Source of the DNA: Shewanella sp. 1CM18E
GTDB taxonomy: Bacteria; Pseudomonadota; Gammaproteobacteria; Enterobacterales; Shewanellaceae
DNA length: 64,000 nucleotides
Assembly: GCF_023161665.1 (NCBI RefSeq)
Contig: NZ_JALNTW010000004.1
Coordinates: 149,182 to 213,181 of the forward strand
Direction of reading: 5' to 3'
Below the pieces are notes generated by a model. The model did not search any database. It saw only the letters and a list, made by a program, of their open reading frames with translations, and was not told the origin of the DNA. Made by a program: the position numbers and the translations under genes. Shown here piece after piece: positions 1 through 8,097 of this stretch (position 1 is the stretch's first letter; each line of letters starts with the position of its first letter).

Positions 1-605
1 AAGGTTTCTTGCAGCGTGGTTACCAGCAGCTTACGCAACTCACGGGTATCACCCGCAATCTCACCTAGCTCACTGAACTGGAACATCTCTAAGCCGTTTA
101 GCAACTCGGTCACTTGGCTTTGAGCTAATTCGTTTTCACGAATTTTGGCGTTAATACTGCCAACATAACCAAACTCGTTGTTAATTCGGCTCCACAGCAC
201 ACGAATCGAATAACGCAGGCCATCAGCAAAGCTATAAACGTGCTCACTTAAATCTGCGAGATAGGCTTCTGATGCGCTGAAATCCACATTATGACGCGCT
301 TCTTTGTAGTGATCTGCCAAGGTTTTAATGGTGGCCAATGACGAGCCAACATTAGAGTCAATTTGACGGTTACGCTCATCACTCAAGGCTTCTTCTAGCA
401 AAGCACGCACTGAACGTTTTAAGCGGAGTTCTTGCTCCGGCGCTGGTCGCCATAAAATATCACTCTTTTGCAGTTTATCGATGACTGAGGCATTAGTCTC
501 ATCCACCGACACTGAGCCCGATAAATATACGTCCATCACCAGCTCTGCGTGGCGTCCAAGCTGTTTTAGCAGCTTAACACCCGCTTGGTGTAAGTTACTG
601 CTCAT
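1..605 (-). CDS. Third subunit of SMC-like cassette, possibly kleisin-like (partial)
   Basis: This frame stays open from an ATG at 605 to the window edge, giving about 201 residues with no stop, so the gene is truncated by the window. The ATG lies one base after the stop of the 217-residue gene, which indicates translational coupling. The product looks mostly alpha-helical and charged, with no signal peptide or membrane segment. In condensin-like systems (MukBEF, MksBEF, JetABC) the third partner of an SMC-like ATPase and a small winged-helix protein is a kleisin, and I infer that role from position and helical character only. I recognise no specific family. The rest of the gene, and any nuclease gene beyond it, lie outside the window. 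Confidence 0.6.
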   Translation of the reverse strand, partial: MSSNLHQAGVKLLKQLGRHAELVMDVYLSGSVSVDETNASVIDKLQKSDILWRPAPEQELRLKRSVRALLEEALSDERNRQIDSNVGSSLATIKTLADHYKEARHNVDFSASEAYLADLSEHVYSFADGLRYSIRVLWSRINNEFGYVGSINAKIRENELAQSQVTELLNGLEMFQFSELGEIAGDTRELRKLLVTTLQET

Positions 606-606
606 A

Positions 607-1260
607 TTAAACCAAATCCCTTTGGGTCGCGGTTTCAGCTTGTGCTTCGAGACTTAAGCCTTCGGTTTCATCGATAAAGCGGATCACCTCGTACAAGTAA
701 TCTAACTTACCTGTGGCGATGTAAATCTGCTTTTCACTATTAGGGCGGGTTAAATAGCCCAGCTCAACTAGGCGCTTAAACACCAGTTTGATCTGTGCAT
801 CAACGTTAGTACTGGTTGAGCCAAACAAACGGTAGTGGCTGATTTTAGCCAATTGCTCACGAAAGGCTGGTGTGTCTTCAATGCGAGTTTGCAGCTCAGT
901 TAAGCGCACTGCAACCCCTTCTGATAGCGGTGCATCTTGACCACTGCCCTCTTGCACTAACACTAACCACTCCACCAGCGGAATAAGCGCATTACAGATA
1001 TCTTTAAACTGCGAAGAAATGACCTTGCGCTCGCCATCACCAATTTGCTGATAGCCGCAGAAAAATACTTCGCCTTCACCGGCAGAGCCTATGGTGCGAT
1101 TAATCTGATTTAAATACTGCTCAACATGCTCACGTGTCGACGGGCTTTTCAGTGCGCGCCAGCCATCTTCGTCTGTGGTGCGACAAATAAACTGACCTTT
1201 AAGCAAACGCTCGATTAAAGCGCTAGTACCTACGATGGTAGTTTCGGTTGCTTGGCTCAT
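607..1260 (-). CDS. Small winged-helix (KITE/MukE-like) partner of the SMC-like ATPase
   Basis: A 217-residue soluble protein. Its ATG overlaps the stop codon of the upstream SMC-like gene by one base (TAATG), and its stop is one base before the next start, so the three genes are almost certainly co-translated. The C-terminal third (about residues 135-205) alternates helices with a short beta pair, as in a winged helix (segment with FKRLVELGYLTRP). That is the fold expected of MukE, JetB or other KITE subunits that bind a kleisin. The assignment rests on gene size, order and predicted fold. I see no sequence signature that ties it to MukE or DUF4194. Confidence 0.6.
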   Translation of the reverse strand: MSQATETTIVGTSALIERLLKGQFICRTTDEDGWRALKSPSTREHVEQYLNQINRTIGSAGEGEVFFCGYQQIGDGERKVISSQFKDICNALIPLVEWLVLVQEGSGQDAPLSEGVAVRLTELQTRIEDTPAFREQLAKISHYRLFGSTSTNVDAQIKLVFKRLVELGYLTRPNSEKQIYIATGKLDYLYEVIRFIDETEGLSLEAQAETATQRDLV

Positions 1261-4200
1261 TACACGGCCTCCTGTGCACGACGCTGATTAAGTTTATCGG
1301 CGATAGGATTAACTTGAGGCTTAACCACCTGCAGTTTTTTAGTTTGTTTATTAATGATGTAGCGATTAGCAAACAGGTTCAGTACTTCCGACTCTGGGTT
1401 CGGGAATGCACCTAACACTGAAATATTGTTGTTTTCACAGGCATCAAATATCTTCTTCACGTTACCGTGATGCAGTGTACCTAATTCATCAATCGGCCAA
1501 TGAATGGTGACTTCTGCACGGCCACGTAATAAGCGGGTAAAGGCTAGTAGGAACTTACATAGGATCAGGTATGCCATACCATGACTCGATGATTCGTTTA
1601 ACTGTCTGTCGGTGCGAATAACTAAGTCACTGTTACCTTCTTTAAGGCGCAGCTCGATTTCAAGTAGCTTAGCAATACCACCTGACAGTGCAGCGCGGCC
1701 GATAATATCTAGCGCGCGGCGCATGCTGTTGGTGTAATCCTCACCTGGCAAGTCGTTAAAGCCATCGGCTTTCCAGCGTTTGAAGGCTTTTACAAATAGC
1801 TCTAGCTCTGGCCAGAACTCTAATTCGCTAATGCGTGAGCGAATCTTAACTGCTGATTCTGATACACCATCAAGGAACAGCTCTTCACCCACTTCACGGG
1901 TAATACGTGCACTTTGCGAGGCGATACGACGGTCAATATCGGCCAAAACATCATAAAACGCGGTTAAGTCGACACCAAAGATCCGCCCTTGCTCACGCAG
2001 CGCCATTACCGATTGCGGCACCATCACGTTAAGCAGCTGCTCAAGTTGTGGCACAAGCTTACGGTAATCTAAGATGCGGATGCCTTTGTCGTTTACAAAG
2101 CTTGATTCTTCACGGGCGCGCTCCCAAGTTTCAGATAAGCCTGAACCTGATTTGCTGGCAATCACTGAATCAAAGTGCTCAACATATTGCTTTACTGAGC
2201 CCATTAATGAATCGCGCTTTAGCAGTTGGTCTTCACCTTGGCGCAAACGCTCAGTTAAGCTGCCTTGAGCATCTTCATTGTTCGGTGGCAGTTTTAGCTC
2301 ACTCAGCTTACGCATTAAGCTACGCAGTTTAGTGAGATTTTCTGACGCTTCAATTTGCACCGCATCTGACTGCTTACGCTCAGCTTCTAGCTCACTGCGC
2401 TGCGCTTTAATCTCATTTGATTTGGCTTTTAATTGCTGCTCTAAATCTAAGCTAGCATGCTTAACCTTACTCAGTTCTGACTGCAGCTTTGGCTTACGCT
2501 GTAACCAAGTATGCTGGTACCAATCGTCATAACGCAGTACTTCACTGCGGCGCTGCTCAGCCTTAGCAATATTGCTTTCTAGGCTGCGAATTTCAGCTTT
2601 AAGGGCCACGATTTTAGCTTCATCAACACCACGAGATTTAAGCTCGTTTTTGTACCACTGCTCACAGGCTTTTTGCTCGCTGGCAGCATGTTCACGGCGG
2701 TGCTGAATGTTAGCTTTCACTTGGCCAAGCTGATTGTCTAATGCGCCAACCACTTCTTGCCAGTAAGCATTCTTTTCCATGCGCGCTTCTAGCGCTTGCT
2801 CTTTTTGCTCTTCGAGCCACTCTTGCTGCTGCGCTTGTAGCTGCTTGATATCGCTATCAATACGCGTAAGTTGCTTTTGTGAGGCCGCTTTACGCTCGTT
2901 CAGCGCTTGGTTAATCTTTTCTTGCTCGGCGCGCTTATCGTCAAACAAACGGCGTAGGTCGTCACGGCTATTTTTGTAAGCAGTGCGGGCAAACGTCAGT
3001 TCACGCAGCAATTTATCTAGCTCAGTATTGGCAGCAACTAACTGATCTTCTGCTTCTGCTTGCAGCTCTTTGGCGCTAGATAATGCTTCTTCGGCTGAGG
3101 CATGTTTCACTCTTAGCTCTTGCTCTGAAGCGGCATACTCTGGCGCTTCAATCGCTTTTAAGTCCAGCGCGATACCGTAAAGCGCGTCTAGGTTATCACC
3201 ACTTAAACTTGGGTGTAGGTCGCTGCGGTGCAGTAGCTCTGAGTTAATCACCTTACCTAAAGTGTTTTCCCAGCCGCTGGCTTCTTTACGTAAAAACTCA
3301 AGTAAGGTGTGCGACTGCGGGAACAAAATATGTTGCAGTTCTTCAAGCTCGCTTTGACGCTCAGTTACGCGAATGCCCGCAACGCGCAAGCTCTCATTTG
3401 CTTGATCGCGCTTAGCTCTTAGCTTGCGTTCTTCGCTGGTTAAGCGGTCCACCTTAGCGTTACAGGCTTCTTGGTCTTCATCAGCGCGAGATATACGCTC
3501 GTCGAACACTGCAAGTACTAACTTCTCATCTTCTGAGTAAGTCACGCTATCAACACGCACTTTAAGCTCGGCTGCATTCACCTTTAACTGGTAGGCTTGC
3601 TCACTAAATTGTGCCTGACCTTTTTCGGTCGATTCACGCCACTCTTGCTCAAGCTCGGCAAGTTCACCGCGGCCAACCTCTCTTTGCTTATCGCGAGATT
3701 CACGCAAACTATCTTGCTCTTGATGCAAGGTTTCTAACTCGCGGTTTAGACCTTCACCAATTTTGCTACGACGGGCGTTGTATGCTGCTTCAATATCTTG
3801 ATGCTTTTCAGTTTGTAGCTTATGACGTTCAGTTAAGTTCTCTAAACTGCCGCGCCAGTTAGGCAATTGCTCTAAATCTGCTTTCGCTTGTTCGATGTCT
3901 GCATCTTGGAAACTGGCATGCTGATCTTCAATCGCGTCCAGTTCATGCTCACACTTAGCCACATCACCTTTGGCAGCAGACAGATCTAAGCTCAGCTCAT
4001 CGCGCTGCTCTTTCCAATCTTCATCAAGCTGACGTAACTGGGCATTGAGTGCTTTAGATAGATCTTGATGGTGTTCTTGACGCTCAACTTCTGTGGTTTC
4101 ATCTTTACTGTAACCACGGCGCAAACTGGCAAGGCGCTGCTCAGTACTTAACAACTGGTCAAATTCTTGCTCTAGCTTTTCAAACTCTGGACGAATTTGC

Positions 4201-4934
4201 TCGAAGCCTTGAATCAGCTGACTTTCGCGGATCCACGCTTCTACGCGCTGTGGGTTTAAACGTGAGCTTGGTGGATTAACCCCGTCTTCTTCTAAAATGG
4301 CAGCGATCATCGATTTGATCGTTTCCATTTTGCCCTCTTTCGAGTGCACCGCTTTCGCTAGCTTTTCAATGTGACGCAGTGAATGCTCAGCTTCACACAG
4401 TGAGAACTGACGGGCGTAATTACGTAACTCAGTGCGGTTACTGCCTGTGCTTAATAGCGCGCGATCGTTTTGGATAATCGCTCTAAACTCGCGAGTATTG
4501 AGCAGGTTAGTCACCGCAACGCCAGCGCGTTTCATCTCACGGCCAAGTTCCGCCATGGTGTAACACTGAATGCTGTCGCCTTGCTTGGTCTTAATGTAAT
4601 CATCAAGCTCAAAGCCTTTAGCAATAAAGCGATAGTTTACCCCTTTACCGTCGCCTGCCGATGCCAATACCGCCTGATACGCTAGGCCGTCTGACTTAAT
4701 GTATTCGTAGATGATAAAGCTTGAATCATGGGGTAAATACCAACGCTCAAAACTATCACGGGTTGATGGCACCACTCGACTTGGGTATTCACCATAAAAA
4801 ACCGGTACTAAACGCTGCAATGTGGTTTTACCCGATGCGTTAGTTCCGCAAATATTGGTGTGGCCATCCAGCGCCAGTTCAACCACTCCCGGTAGGTGAG
4901 TGTCGATAAGTATGATGCGATTTAAGCTTGGCAT
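1260..4934 (-). CDS. SMC-like chromosome/DNA-handling ATPase (DUF3584 type)
   Basis: A 1224-residue coiled-coil ATPase of the SMC/Rad50/MukB class. Walker A is at residues 30-38 (GTNASGKTT). It is followed near residue 66 by a YLP motif. GKT and YLP are the two motifs I associate with DUF3584, a family of roughly 940-1230 residues. A long, Glu/Gln/Lys-rich coiled coil fills about residues 240-1000. The C-terminal head carries a signature-like stretch (SSSHGMAYLIL) and a Walker B with D1149-E1150 (TIHWPIDELG). Head, coil and head in one chain is the architecture of a DNA-entrapping ATPase. It is first in an overlapping three-gene operon. Its role may be chromosome organisation, repair or plasmid restriction; the sequence does not decide between them. 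Confidence 0.8.
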   Translation of the reverse strand: MPSLNRIILIDTHLPGVVELALDGHTNICGTNASGKTTLQRLVPVFYGEYPSRVVPSTRDSFERWYLPHDSSFIIYEYIKSDGLAYQAVLASAGDGKGVNYRFIAKGFELDDYIKTKQGDSIQCYTMAELGREMKRAGVAVTNLLNTREFRAIIQNDRALLSTGSNRTELRNYARQFSLCEAEHSLRHIEKLAKAVHSKEGKMETIKSMIAAILEEDGVNPPSSRLNPQRVEAWIRESQLIQGFEQIRPEFEKLEQEFDQLLSTEQRLASLRRGYSKDETTEVERQEHHQDLSKALNAQLRQLDEDWKEQRDELSLDLSAAKGDVAKCEHELDAIEDQHASFQDADIEQAKADLEQLPNWRGSLENLTERHKLQTEKHQDIEAAYNARRSKIGEGLNRELETLHQEQDSLRESRDKQREVGRGELAELEQEWRESTEKGQAQFSEQAYQLKVNAAELKVRVDSVTYSEDEKLVLAVFDERISRADEDQEACNAKVDRLTSEERKLRAKRDQANESLRVAGIRVTERQSELEELQHILFPQSHTLLEFLRKEASGWENTLGKVINSELLHRSDLHPSLSGDNLDALYGIALDLKAIEAPEYAASEQELRVKHASAEEALSSAKELQAEAEDQLVAANTELDKLLRELTFARTAYKNSRDDLRRLFDDKRAEQEKINQALNERKAASQKQLTRIDSDIKQLQAQQQEWLEEQKEQALEARMEKNAYWQEVVGALDNQLGQVKANIQHRREHAASEQKACEQWYKNELKSRGVDEAKIVALKAEIRSLESNIAKAEQRRSEVLRYDDWYQHTWLQRKPKLQSELSKVKHASLDLEQQLKAKSNEIKAQRSELEAERKQSDAVQIEASENLTKLRSLMRKLSELKLPPNNEDAQGSLTERLRQGEDQLLKRDSLMGSVKQYVEHFDSVIASKSGSGLSETWERAREESSFVNDKGIRILDYRKLVPQLEQLLNVMVPQSVMALREQGRIFGVDLTAFYDVLADIDRRIASQSARITREVGEELFLDGVSESAVKIRSRISELEFWPELELFVKAFKRWKADGFNDLPGEDYTNSMRRALDIIGRAALSGGIAKLLEIELRLKEGNSDLVIRTDRQLNESSSHGMAYLILCKFLLAFTRLLRGRAEVTIHWPIDELGTLHHGNVKKIFDACENNNISVLGAFPNPESEVLNLFANRYIINKQTKKLQVVKPQVNPIADKLNQRRAQEAV

Positions 4935-5226
4935 TGCATTCCTTAATCCAAACAGAGCCGTAACGTGCTACCTCTAATAAGTGCACGTTAAGCGAAAAAT
5001 GTCAGGTCTAATTTCAGGGCTATAAAAAATTCGATGGTCTCTAAATTAAAGGAAACTGCCACTCTTGGCAATTGTGCCAAAGCGCTATTGGGGCAGTTTT
5101 TAAGACCTATTTACTAGAGCGAGATCATACGCGATTTTGGCGTATTTTAATGCTCAATCAATAAGCAGTTAACAAGCGACGCTGGCAATTAAATTCTTTA
5201 ATACTTTTGAACAAAAACAGCCCAAG
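4935..5226. other. Intergenic region upstream of the SMC-like operon
   Basis: This AT-rich stretch holds the promoter region of the leftward SMC-like operon. I saw no clear operator, RNA gene or ORF. The right end abuts the terminator of the AGCS symporter gene, so the operon should have its own promoter. Confidence 0.4.
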
Positions 5227-5258
5227 AAAAAGCCCGCGTCATAGCTAATGAGGCGGGC
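5227..5258 (-). terminator. Rho-independent terminator of the AGCS symporter gene
   Basis: Read on the minus strand, GCCCGC and GCGGGC (5253-5258 with 5232-5237) form a six-pair GC stem followed by a run of five T. It lies about 45 bases after the symporter stop. Confidence 0.85.
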
Positions 5259-5304
5259 CCTATTTAATCAAAGGTACTTACTGCATCTGTGTAAGCTCAA
5301 GTAC

Positions 5305-6675
5305 TTAAGCTAATGAGCTCTGAGTCTGCAAAGCTTGTTGCTTAGCAAAGTACTTACGAGTCTCTTTTAAGATAATGTGTCTTAGACCGATTATCGCTAT
5401 TAGGTTAGGGATGGCCATCAAACCATTTACGGTATCGGCTAGCATCCAAATCACATCCAACTGAATAAACGCACCACCGGCAATTAAGCCTAAAAACACA
5501 CACTGATAAATTTTAATGCCATTGTCGCCTAAGCGTGCACCGGTTAAGTAATACCAGCAGCGTTCACCGTAGTAGTGCCAACCTAAAATAGTGGTAAAGG
5601 CAAAACAAACTAGGGCAATGGTTACCACATATTGGCCAATCACCGCTGAGCCACTAGCAGCAAACGCCGCACTAGTCATGGCTGCACCGGCGGTATCACC
5701 GCTCCATACACCTGTGATGATTAATACTAGACCTGTCATGGTACAGATTAAAATCGTGTCAAAGAAAGTACCAGTCATACTTACCAAACCTTGCTCTACA
5801 GGTTCGTTTGTCTTAGCCGCTGCTGCGGCAATTGGCGCACTTCCTAGGCCTGATTCATTGGAAAATACACCACGTGCAATACCAATTTGTAATGCCTGCG
5901 CGACCGTTGCACCTAAGAAACCACCAGCCGCAGAAATTGGCGTAAAGGCTGAGTGAATAACCAGTTCAAATGCAGGAATGATTTGCTCACTAAAGGTAAA
6001 TAACACCCATAAACAGGCAAGTACGTAACCTAGCGCCATAGTAGGTACTAACTTTTGCGCCACGTTAGCAATACGCTTAACACCACCTAATGTCACTGCA
6101 GCAACCATCAAAGTGAGTATCACAGCAGTTACCCAAGATGGGATCTCAAAAGCAATGGTCATGGCATCGCTAATGGCATTAACCTGCGCAAAGGTACCGA
6201 TACCAAAAAATGCGACACCTACGCCAAACACGGCAAAGATTTTAGCTAACCACTTAAGCCCTAAACCGCGCTCAATGTAATACATTGGGCCACCAGCAAT
6301 ATTACCTTTAGCATCTGTGGTACGGTATTTTACCGCTAACATACATTCAGCGTACTTGGTCGCCATACCAAAAAAGGCAGCTAACCACATCCAAAATAGT
6401 GCCCCAGGGCCACCAATTTTAATCGCGGTTGCCACACCAACAATATTACCAGTACCGATTGTTGCCGATAGCGCAGTACACAGCGCGGCAAAAGATGACA
6501 AATCGCCCTTGCCTTGGTTTGGTTTAAACAATAAACCTAAGGCCATTGGCAATTTAAACACTTGAATAAGTTTGAGTCGTAAAGTCAGGTAAAGACCGGT
6601 TCCAACCAATAAGCACAGGGTAATAGGTCCCCAGACTATGGCATTGATATCGGCTAAAAGCGCTTGAAAATTCAT
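5305..6675 (-). CDS. Sodium:alanine/glycine symporter, AGCS family
   Basis: A 456-residue inner-membrane protein with about ten to eleven hydrophobic helices, typical in length and composition for the alanine/glycine:cation symporter family (AgcS, AlsT, DagA). It is expected to import glycine or alanine with sodium. The N-terminal half contains the conserved stretch with ATIGTGNIVGVA and the GGPMYYIERGLG segment; the middle has the GVFSNESGLGSAP motif of the family. The start is supported by GAGGAA four bases before the ATG. The long leader carries a tandem glycine riboswitch, so glycine is probably a substrate and its level controls expression. The gene stands alone and ends at a strong terminator. 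Confidence 0.93.
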   Translation of the reverse strand: MNFQALLADINAIVWGPITLCLLVGTGLYLTLRLKLIQVFKLPMALGLLFKPNQGKGDLSSFAALCTALSATIGTGNIVGVATAIKIGGPGALFWMWLAAFFGMATKYAECMLAVKYRTTDAKGNIAGGPMYYIERGLGLKWLAKIFAVFGVGVAFFGIGTFAQVNAISDAMTIAFEIPSWVTAVILTLMVAAVTLGGVKRIANVAQKLVPTMALGYVLACLWVLFTFSEQIIPAFELVIHSAFTPISAAGGFLGATVAQALQIGIARGVFSNESGLGSAPIAAAAAKTNEPVEQGLVSMTGTFFDTILICTMTGLVLIITGVWSGDTAGAAMTSAAFAASGSAVIGQYVVTIALVCFAFTTILGWHYYGERCWYYLTGARLGDNGIKIYQCVFLGLIAGGAFIQLDVIWMLADTVNGLMAIPNLIAIIGLRHIILKETRKYFAKQQALQTQSSLA

Positions 6676-6889
6676 GGTATTCCTCGAGTATTAAACAACA
6701 AAACTCTTTAATTAGAGTTATTAATAATCGGAGGAGGAAAAGAAATGCCTGTTGCTAATCACTAACGAATGCAACGAGCGAATGAGTCGACCTAAGCTAA
6801 TGAATATTAACCTAAGTAGAAAAAGGCGCAGCGACAAACGACAGTGACCTCAATGTAGCTATATTGAAATATATAACTAGCACAGTCAT

Positions 6890-7165
6890 CCTCTCCTCTG
6901 TCCTTTTGCCTGAGCGTTTCGCGTAATCTCTTAGCTAAGTTTAATAGCTGAGATTACACTTTCGCCTTCGGCGCTGTGTGACGATTAAGCTTACGAACAC
7001 TTAATTGCTCACAGTCTCTCCAGAGGCTCGTCCAGTAACAGTCCTCACCACTAAGTGGCACCTGAAAGAGTGCTTTGTTTGGCTTTACGCCTTACAAAGT
7101 TGCCTCGTCGGTGTGGGGTTACTCCCCACTCTCCTGCTACCTTCATCCGAACGGATCCCCAACTT
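6890..7165 (-). promoter_or_regulatory. Tandem glycine riboswitch (gcvT type)
   Basis: On the minus strand two glycine aptamers follow one another. The first has GGAGAG (near 7134), a CACCGACGAGGCAA core and an ACTCTTTCAGGT segment. The second has GGAGAG (near 7020), a CGCCGAAGGCGAAA core and the hallmark CGCTCAGGCAAAAGGACAG near 6900. A short linker joins them, and about 215 bases separate the last aptamer from the symporter ATG. These are the conserved elements of the gcvT RNA class, which senses glycine through paired aptamers. Whether this copy turns the transporter on or off cannot be read with certainty. Boundaries are approximate. Confidence 0.93.
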
Positions 7166-7331
7166 TGGCTAACCATTAGGGCTAGTAAGCGATAGGGACC
7201 AGTAGAATGCGCTTTATCAAAAAAGCGCTCAAGTGGTTTAAGTCACATTTTTAAGCTAAATAAGAAGGTTAACGGTTTAATTGCGCAAATTTAATACATA
7301 CCAGGTACATTTTGCGCAATGACTAGGTGCT

Positions 7332-7365
7332 AAAAAGCCGCTTAAGCTAATGCTTAAACGGCTTT
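7332..7365 (-). terminator. Terminator of the DUF3581 gene
   Basis: AAGCCG-TTAAGC at 7335-7347 pairs with GCTTAA-CGGCTT at 7352-7365 around a TAAT loop, and a T run follows on the minus strand. It lies about 30 bases past the stop of the leftward gene. Confidence 0.8.
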
Positions 7366-7392
7366 CGAGGTGTAAAGAATAAGGTGGAGCGA

Positions 7393-8097
7393 TTAACTAA
7401 ATGCGACTCTGCGGCTCTCGTAGGCATCACACATCTGCAATGCAGACTCTTCTTCGTATGGGCGCAATCCACTCATCACCAGTGTTTTAACGCCAGTACC
7501 GACAATGACGTCACCACTGAGTAGCTCAAAGGTTAAGGTCACATCACCACGCTTACCTTCGATTTGTAGGTCTTGCTCCACCAGCTTTAGGCTTACTTCA
7601 GTAAAATCTAAAGTGGTTAAGTCAAATGACATGCTCTCGTAGATCACTAACGGGCGAGCAGGATTAATCATCATTTGGTGCTGCTTCATCATAGGCACCA
7701 AAATATGCATAAAGTTAAGCCCTGAAAACGCCACATATTTGCGAATAAATGACTCGATTTGCGTTTCACAATAACGCACATCACCGCTACGATGCACTTC
7801 AAGGTAACATTTGTCTTTATTGTCACGAATATCAAAATCTTCAGCTACATCATCAGGAAACTGTAACTGCACACCATCGCCAACCATACCAGCGAAGTTA
7901 AACGTCATTTTCTGGCTTAAGCCGTATTGATTAAGGACTAAGGCAAATAACAAATCTCCGGGTACACAAAAACGCTTTGCCGCCACATCGTGGATAGGGT
8001 TGAAGTCTTGAGCAATGCTTTTAGCAAAATCACTGGCCTGGGTCGGAGTGATAGTAACTGACTGGTTTTCTTTTTTAAAATAAGTACTTAAAAACAT
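7393..8097 (-). CDS. DUF3581 family protein
   Basis: A conserved protein of about 234 residues that I recognise as DUF3581, seen in Shewanella and relatives; its function is unknown. The N-terminal part contains DFNPIHD, which resembles the substrate-site motif of MaoC/hotdog dehydratases (FNPxH). The rest also looks like alternating strands and one long helix, so a hotdog-type fold acting on a CoA or acyl thioester is conceivable but unproven. There is no signal peptide. The ATG at 8097 is preferred over an upstream GTG at 8103 because of its GAG-containing ribosome site. It is a single gene with its own terminator. Confidence 0.75.
   Translation of the reverse strand: MFLSTYFKKENQSVTITPTQASDFAKSIAQDFNPIHDVAAKRFCVPGDLLFALVLNQYGLSQKMTFNFAGMVGDGVQLQFPDDVAEDFDIRDNKDKCYLEVHRSGDVRYCETQIESFIRKYVAFSGLNFMHILVPMMKQHQMMINPARPLVIYESMSFDLTTLDFTEVSLKLVEQDLQIEGKRGDVTLTFELLSGDVIVGTGVKTLVMSGLRPYEEESALQMCDAYESRRVAFS

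What the first reader, a model, noticed from the sequence alone, without database searches (positions are those of the whole stretch)
1..4934. SMC-like (DUF3584) three-gene cassette resembling a condensin or Wadjet core in a different gene order
Seen: a 1224-residue protein with head, long coil and head (Walker A at 30-38, D1149-E1150 Walker B), followed by a 217-residue winged-helix-like protein and a helical third protein, with stop/start overlaps of one base and a gap of one base. Known: MukBEF, MksBEF and JetABC use the same three component types, and JetABC adds a nuclease JetD. Inference: this is an independent SMC-like complex transcribed ATPase first, unlike JetABCD, where the ATPase is third. 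It may organise DNA or exclude plasmids.
Basis: partly seen in the sequence, partly recalled or inferred. Interest (0 to 1): 0.78.

Follow-up and report, generated by a model that had tools for sequence, protein, structure and literature searches.

The report
Shewanella condensin with an optional nuclease
A DNA-organising motor complex kept by nearly every Shewanella carries a probable DNA-cutting partner gene in some species and lacks it in others, including this one, which gives a natural experiment on how chromosome machines and plasmid-defence machines turn into one another.

Summary
In detail: an SMC-like ATPase (DUF3584, 1224 aa), a MksE-type KITE (217 aa) and, completed outside the window, a 406-aa protein that looks like a MukF/JetA kleisin, transcribed ATPase first. 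The genome is a Shewanella near S. pneumatophori. It has no JetD_C or DUF7281 match, but does have a canonical SMC. The complex is core in its family: 144 of 146 genomes have a homologue, and the core's dN/dS (about 0.02) equals the neighbouring transporter's. In 69 of those genomes the operon has a fourth gene, a DUF7281 toprim protein whose model resembles Top6A, MksG and JetD. In the window's clade it is in 54 of 130 family loci, changes state at least 11 times on the tree, and has about six times the core's dN/dS. One relative keeps a 41-residue stub. In a distant clade 20 of 20 loci keep it. I read this as a Muk/Mks/Jet-type complex with a housekeeping core and an optional Wadjet-like nuclease, here absent and probably lost. 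Chromosome and plasmid roles are inferred. PADLOC gives only weak matches. The published idea that MksBEF arose from Wadjet by losing JetD becomes testable between close relatives.

The parts
1260..4934 (-). SMC-like ATPase (DUF3584, MukB/MksB/JetC type), 1224 aa, first gene of the operon
   Evidence: PF12128 1643.6 bits; Walker A 30-38, D1149-E1150
607..1260 (-). KITE subunit (MksE-like), 217 aa, second gene; shares one base with the ATPase stop codon
   Evidence: (PF21980 28.1 bits, cut-off 27)
1..605 (-). 5' part of the kleisin gene (MukF/JetA type, 406 aa in full; completes 616 bases left of the window at C36:148566)
   Evidence: AlphaFold2 and Foldseek

Best explanation
This is a Muk/Mks/Jet-type SMC complex whose three-gene core (ATPase, KITE, kleisin, in that order) is a housekeeping condensin of Shewanellaceae, working beside canonical Smc. 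Shown: the three components (the kleisin by model only), intact ATPase motifs, near-universal presence, strong purifying selection, and a fourth DUF7281 toprim gene at the same place in 69 of 146 family genomes. Inferred from MukBEF and Wadjet: kleisin N-termini join two SMC motors, which load on DNA and extrude loops. Where the fourth protein is present, it docks on the same motor and cuts small circular DNA once the loop is fully extruded, as JetD does. In the window's species the nuclease gene is absent, most likely lost, so the complex would act on DNA without cutting it, helping chromosome organisation or segregation like P. aeruginosa MksBEF.
For: Homologue in 144 of 146 family genomes; same order in 152 of 153 loci, the exception cut by a contig end. 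Walker A lysine in 151 of 151 aligned ATPases. Median dN/dS 0.024 (ATPase), 0.020 (KITE), 0.022 (kleisin) without the nuclease and 0.024, 0.014, 0.020 with it; nuclease 0.147. The neighbouring transporter scores 0.0245 (43 pairs) against 0.024 for the ATPase (41 of the same 43 pairs within the dS limits). Kleisin: Foldseek ranks 1-11 all MukF/JetA chains, best E 1.8e-4. Fourth protein (model of the G063 protein): VIA-align MksG Z 12.7, Top6A 11.4, JetD 10.9, Spo11 9.6, then other toprim proteins at 6.8 and below; E, D and D of the toprim motif invariant in 33 of 33. One relative (G054) keeps a 41-residue stub, 97.6% identical to the G088 protein. Canonical SMC above the family cut-off in 142 of 146, the window's genome included.
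Against: No experiment. Low dN/dS shows that the function matters, not that it is chromosome organisation; a constantly useful defence could also be core. Presence/absence alone does not polarise: with the nuclease at the root, a gain-plus-loss model fits much better than loss only (lnL -46.3 against -78.9), a flat root or a root without it fits slightly better still (-45.5, -45.0), and the fitted gain rate exceeds the loss rate; very unequal branch lengths confound all of these. The kleisin model has pTM 0.46, Foldseek TM-scores to MukF/JetA are only 0.11-0.30, and in VIA MukF ties with STAT bundles at Z 12.2. MksG and JetD are not in the 50 Foldseek rows for the fourth protein, where Top6A leads; they come up in the VIA second look.
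Confidence: 0.66

Rival explanations
1. The complex is a defence system in all members. Lineages without the DUF7281 gene still exclude plasmids or phages, using an unlinked nuclease or by non-cutting sequestration.
For: Homologous four-gene operons lie on large plasmids and in the distant clade. The operon is replaced by the distant version at the same locus in six Shewanella genomes, as defence loci often are (recalled).
Against: A homologue is in 144 of 146 genomes, whereas defence systems are usually patchy (recalled). No JetD_C or DUF7281 match in the window's genome, though other nucleases were not searched. Core dN/dS is about the same with and without the nuclease.
Confidence: 0.18
2. 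The ancestral state was a three-gene condensin and the nuclease was acquired several times as an add-on, so condensins become defence systems rather than the reverse.
For: The gain-plus-loss model gives a higher gain than loss rate and fits far better than loss only, and a root without the nuclease fits slightly best.
Against: The nuclease tree follows the core tree (Mantel r 0.87, largest of 999 permutations 0.40). The one apparent transfer I noted (G122) is not supported: holding it in its expected place is not rejected, AU p 0.4. All 20 loci of the distant clade and the locus G510 have it. G054 shows a direct loss. Eleven of 31 well-supported splits of the nuclease tree are not in the core tree, some conflicting with supported core splits, so exchange among near relatives is not excluded.
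Confidence: 0.2
3. The fourth protein is not a nuclease partner but a regulator or topoisomerase-like factor that happens to share the operon.
For: It has no tested function; its Pfam family DUF7281 is of unknown function. Foldseek ranks Top6A first.
Against: In the VIA second look its best match is MksG, with JetD, Top6A and Spo11 close behind. The toprim E and DxD are invariant in 33 of 33. It follows the kleisin gene in all 73 loci where it was found.
Confidence: 0.12

Closest known systems
MksBEF of Pseudomonas aeruginosa (three-gene condensin without nuclease)
   Same: ATPase, MksE-type KITE and kleisin; no nuclease gene; coexists with canonical SMC; described as acting in chromosome segregation (PMC7485682, start of abstract and passages seen)
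   Different: Known mks operons run kleisin-KITE-ATPase (mksFEBG; PMC10123090, passages seen); here ATPase-KITE-kleisin. No P. aeruginosa sequence was compared here.
Wadjet / JetABCD / MksBEFG
   Same: Same three core types plus, in relatives, a toprim protein whose model resembles MksG and JetD
   Different: Gene order. The fourth protein is of the DUF7281 family, about 300 aa, and absent here. PADLOC Jet models score the ATPase at 16.7 bits and the KITE at 15.6 bits at best.
MukBEF of Escherichia coli
   Same: Kleisin model matches MukF chains best
   Different: MukB (PF04310) not detected in this genome. E. coli has the ATPase last (mukFEB, recalled).

Membership tests
Muk/Mks/Jet superfamily of SMC complexes | SMC-type ATPase with Walker A and B at the two ends of a long protein, DUF3584 | tested here: met
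Muk/Mks/Jet superfamily of SMC complexes | MukE/MksE-type KITE partner | tested here: met
   PF21980 at 28.1 bits (cut-off 27) for the window's protein; 31 of 35 members of A4 match at E<=0.01
Muk/Mks/Jet superfamily of SMC complexes | MukF/JetA-type kleisin | tested here: met
   by predicted fold only: Foldseek ranks 1-11 MukF/JetA, best E 1.8e-4, low TM-scores; VIA Z 12.2 tied with STAT bundles; no Pfam family for the window's protein
Muk/Mks/Jet superfamily of SMC complexes | The three proteins form one complex that extrudes DNA loops | not testable with these tools
   needs purification or microscopy
Wadjet (JetABCD) | JetD-type toprim nuclease in the operon | tested here: not met
   none in the window's operon or, by JetD_C or DUF7281, its genome; relatives have a DUF7281 gene there
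Wadjet (JetABCD) | Recognised by PADLOC Jet profiles | tested here: inconclusive
   best 16.7 bits, E 0.00037, a short N-terminal stretch of JetC; cut-offs are not given
Wadjet (JetABCD) | Order kleisin-KITE-ATPase-nuclease | tested here: not met
   ATPase-KITE-kleisin in 152 of 153 loci, the other cut by a contig end
Wadjet (JetABCD) | Restricts small circular plasmids | not testable with these tools
   needs a transformation or conjugation assay

The most novel reading that the evidence does not exclude
One bacterial family shows a reversible switch between condensin and plasmid-cutting machine: the same conserved SMC motor gains or loses a plug-in DUF7281 nuclease at least eleven times while the motor is held under unchanged selection, and whole operons of the always-armed version replace it at the same chromosomal site. 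The armed form would be an unrecognised, ATPase-first Wadjet type that also rides on large plasmids.
Probability: 0.45. Interest if true: 0.8.

Novelty: new variant of a known kind. Interest (0 to 1): 0.62.

Why it matters
A review speculates that MksBEF condensins descend from Wadjet by loss of JetD (PMC10586767, passages and one section read). Here genomes with and without the nuclease can be very close: the operon core of G054 (stub only) and G073 (nuclease) is 96.4% identical in DNA over 6.1 kb, and G063, which has it, has an ATPase 91% identical to the window's. So the step can be tested by deleting one gene in one species and comparing with a naturally nuclease-free neighbour. It also points to a likely plasmid-defence type that PADLOC 2.0.0 matches only weakly, and to a candidate function for DUF7281.

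Tried and rejected
Sequence matches of the window's three proteins to solved structures: none informative (profile searches gave only a weak Spo11 match for the fourth protein, E 0.006). PADLOC gave weak Jet matches for ATPase and KITE and for 6 of the 9 fourth proteins scanned; NCBIfam gave only weak coiled-coil SMC matches. Nuclease remnants downstream of the kleisin in loci without the gene: 1 of 79 (G054) at tblastn E<=1e-3 (the 79 include G023, whose locus ends at a contig end). Transfer of the G122 nuclease: suggested by the FastTree, not supported by the AU test. One promoter/terminator scan downstream of the kleisin: nothing above shuffles. By VIA, MukF ties with STAT bundles, so the kleisin call rests on the Foldseek ranking and the topology.

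Corrected on the way: G023 was first counted as lacking the nuclease (12 changes, 21 losses); the gene is on another contig, and it counts as present (11 changes, 20 losses). G127 (contig split) and G071 (ATPase in two open frames) were left out of trees and dN/dS; both have the nuclease. Pairs with dS outside 0.05-2.0 were dropped. Of 71 family genomes with DUF7281, two (G123, G108) have it elsewhere and not at this operon.

Full report
What is there. The window is G000:C36:149182-213181. On its minus strand lies an operon of a 1224-aa ATPase (1260-4934), a 217-aa protein (607-1260) and a third gene that starts at 605 and leaves the window. Fetching the flank shows the third gene whole: 406 aa, followed after 447 bases by a transporter-like gene, with no nuclease between. 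The ATPase is DUF3584 over residues 8-1196 at 1643.6 bits; the small protein just passes the MksE cut-off (28.1 against 27). The 69 named loci found with the ATPase are all Shewanella or Parashewanella, the nearest S. pneumatophori at 98%, so I take the genome to be a Shewanella.

The third protein is probably a kleisin. No Pfam family matches it. An AlphaFold2 model from 70 relatives (mean pLDDT 81.1, pTM 0.46) shows N-terminal helices with short strands, long helices, low-confidence linkers at about 256-271 and 295-320, and a C-terminal part ending in two strands. Foldseek against solved structures ranks MukF or JetA chains in all of the first eleven places, best E 1.8e-4, two at E<=0.001, with TM-scores of only 0.11-0.30. 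VIA-align gives MukF Z 12.2, tied with STAT helical bundles, so the assignment rests on the Foldseek ranking and the topology.

A core complex of the family. A homologue of the ATPase is in 144 of 146 genomes drawn from the window's family; the two without it are both of genus g3, with 2.3 and 1.3 Mb held. In the class only 10 of 369 genomes, the window's own included, had one at this sensitivity. I tabulated 153 loci: the order ATPase, KITE, kleisin holds in 152, the other being cut by a contig end. Canonical SMC is above its cut-off in 142 of 146 family genomes, the window's own at 991 bits. MukB was over its cut-off in 4 of 146 and not found in the window's genome.

An optional fourth gene. 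Downstream of the kleisin many relatives have a further gene, its open frame 220-351 aa long with one of 637. All ten that I scanned belong to DUF7281 (PF23947), with sub-threshold similarity in some to Top6A/Spo11 toprim and JetD models. DUF7281 is in 71 of 146 family genomes and not in the window's; two of the 71 have it elsewhere, leaving 69 at the ATPase-first operon. A model of the G063 protein from 33 relatives (pLDDT 90.3) has Top6A as its best Foldseek match (E 7e-5). In the VIA second look it is closest to the C. glutamicum MksG nuclease (Z 12.7), Top6A (11.4), P. aeruginosa JetD (10.9) and Spo11 (9.6); other toprim proteins such as DnaG follow at 6.8 and below. The toprim E and DxD are invariant in 33 of 33 sequences. 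In one Shewanella (G123) a separate operon, by gene sizes and its MksE match in the usual kleisin-first order, carries a nuclease that passes both the DUF7281 and the JetD_C cut-offs, which links the two families.

Presence and absence. On a FastTree tree of the joined core proteins (151 loci), loci fall into a distant clade A (ATPase 22-28% identical to the window's), the single locus G510, and the window's clade B. After correcting G023, clade A has the nuclease in 20 of 20, G510 has it, and clade B in 52 of 130, with at least 11 changes of state, or 20 losses if it is never regained (20 also with forks under 0.9 collapsed). Within the family alone, with G127 and G071 added and two loci of another family left out, clade B has it in 54 of 130 and clade A in 15 of 15. 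The window's subclade of 12 lacks it, while its sister subclade of 7 (ATPase 88-91% identical) has it. The nuclease tree broadly follows the core tree (Mantel r 0.87; largest of 999 permutations 0.40), though 11 of its 31 well-supported splits are not in the core tree; the one apparent transfer I tested is not supported (AU p 0.4). G054 keeps only the last 41 residues, 97.6% identical to the G088 protein, direct evidence of one loss; the other 78 loci scanned have no remnant. Against a pure-loss history, a two-rate model that allows gains fits much better than loss only, and a root without the nuclease fits slightly best, so the direction is not settled.

Selection. In disjoint close pairs the median dN/dS of ATPase, KITE and kleisin is 0.024, 0.020, 0.022 without the nuclease (26, 25, 22 pairs) and 0.024, 0.014, 0.020 with it (19, 20, 20 pairs); the nuclease is at 0.147 (20 pairs). 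The adjacent transporter, a plain comparison gene, is at 0.0245 (43 pairs). Lacking the nuclease leaves no clear trace of relaxed selection on the core. In clade A the core is faster: ATPase 0.045 in Shewanella (6 non-disjoint pairs) and 0.091 in genus g2 (4 pairs).

Exchange and mobility. In six Shewanella genomes the clade A operon sits beside the same downstream transporter (84-91% identical to the window's) as the clade B operon elsewhere, and in five of the six also beside the same upstream genes; in the sixth (G089) the contig begins too near. The KITE and kleisin matches listed there are 22-31% identical, so the whole operon appears to have been swapped in place. A single-gene tree of the transporter does not group the six, so more than one exchange is possible. 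One genome (G042) has both types. Plasmid records hold distant relatives of the ATPase, none over 60% identical (45 records). Five of the six plasmid regions I opened have the full four-gene operon, the sixth a fragment next to a transposase gene. On a tree these five plasmid ATPases fall outside clade B plus G510 (support 1.0), that is on clade A's side.

Mechanism. Shown: components, intact ATPase motifs, conservation, optional toprim partner with a Top6A/MksG/JetD-like model. Inferred from the literature on JetABCD (PMC10586767, passages and one section read) and P. aeruginosa MksBEF (PMC7485682, passages seen): kleisin-joined double motors extrude DNA loops; with the nuclease docked, complete extrusion of a small circle triggers cutting; without it the motor acts as a condensin. 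For the window's species the second case applies.

What is new. Known mks/jet operons are described as kleisin-KITE-ATPase(-nuclease) (PMC10123090, passages seen). Searches for 'MksB' with 'Shewanella' found no paper, 'DUF7281' none, 'DUF3584' five, none of which by its listing treats this system, and 'Wadjet' with 'Shewanella' eight, which I did not open for this. The 2011 paper that defined MksBEF was not held, so it may already mention ATPase-first operons; the novelty claim is limited accordingly. I file this as a new variant of the Muk/Mks/Jet kind, not as Wadjet, since the window's operon has no nuclease.

Noticed in passing
L235 (G123:C1:1531000-1544000), 2377-7874: A four-gene run (426, 189, 931, 300 aa) that looks like a kleisin-first Mks/Jet operon, beside a ZacA-like gene; the 189-aa protein scores 121 bits to MksE and the 300-aa protein passes both DUF7281 and JetD_C; the 426-aa protein has no family match.
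   Followed up: partly
L236 (G108:C1:2095000-2107000), 6221-7150: An orphan DUF7281 gene with no KITE or kleisin match around it, near a phage-type integrase and after a Na/H exchanger gene, in a genome whose core operon lacks the nuclease.
   Followed up: partly
extra contigs of genomes with 2-3 contigs, L317-L329: Clade B genomes with the nuclease have extra contigs of 13, 23, 150, 162, 212, 231, 249 and 279 kb; those without, 2.9, 50, 52 and 63 kb. Taken as plasmids, this fits restriction of small plasmids weakly (hand-computed one-sided Fisher p 0.03 for >100 kb, post hoc, contigs not independent), with 13 and 23 kb exceptions and a 9 kb contig in a clade A genome (G076).
   Followed up: partly
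plasmid hits H1-H11: All eleven plasmid records with at least 65% of the ATPase covered are longer than 100 kb; no comparison was made with plasmid sizes in general.
   Followed up: no
L234 (G071): The ATPase gene lies in two open frames that meet at one base, either a frameshift in nature or an assembly error.
   Followed up: no
G131, G088, G073 (C1:963175, 2517131, 2485556): Three Shewanella genomes have an additional MukB-like long protein (1532 aa open frame) with a weak JetD_C match about 5 kb away, possibly another SMC-nuclease system.
   Followed up: no
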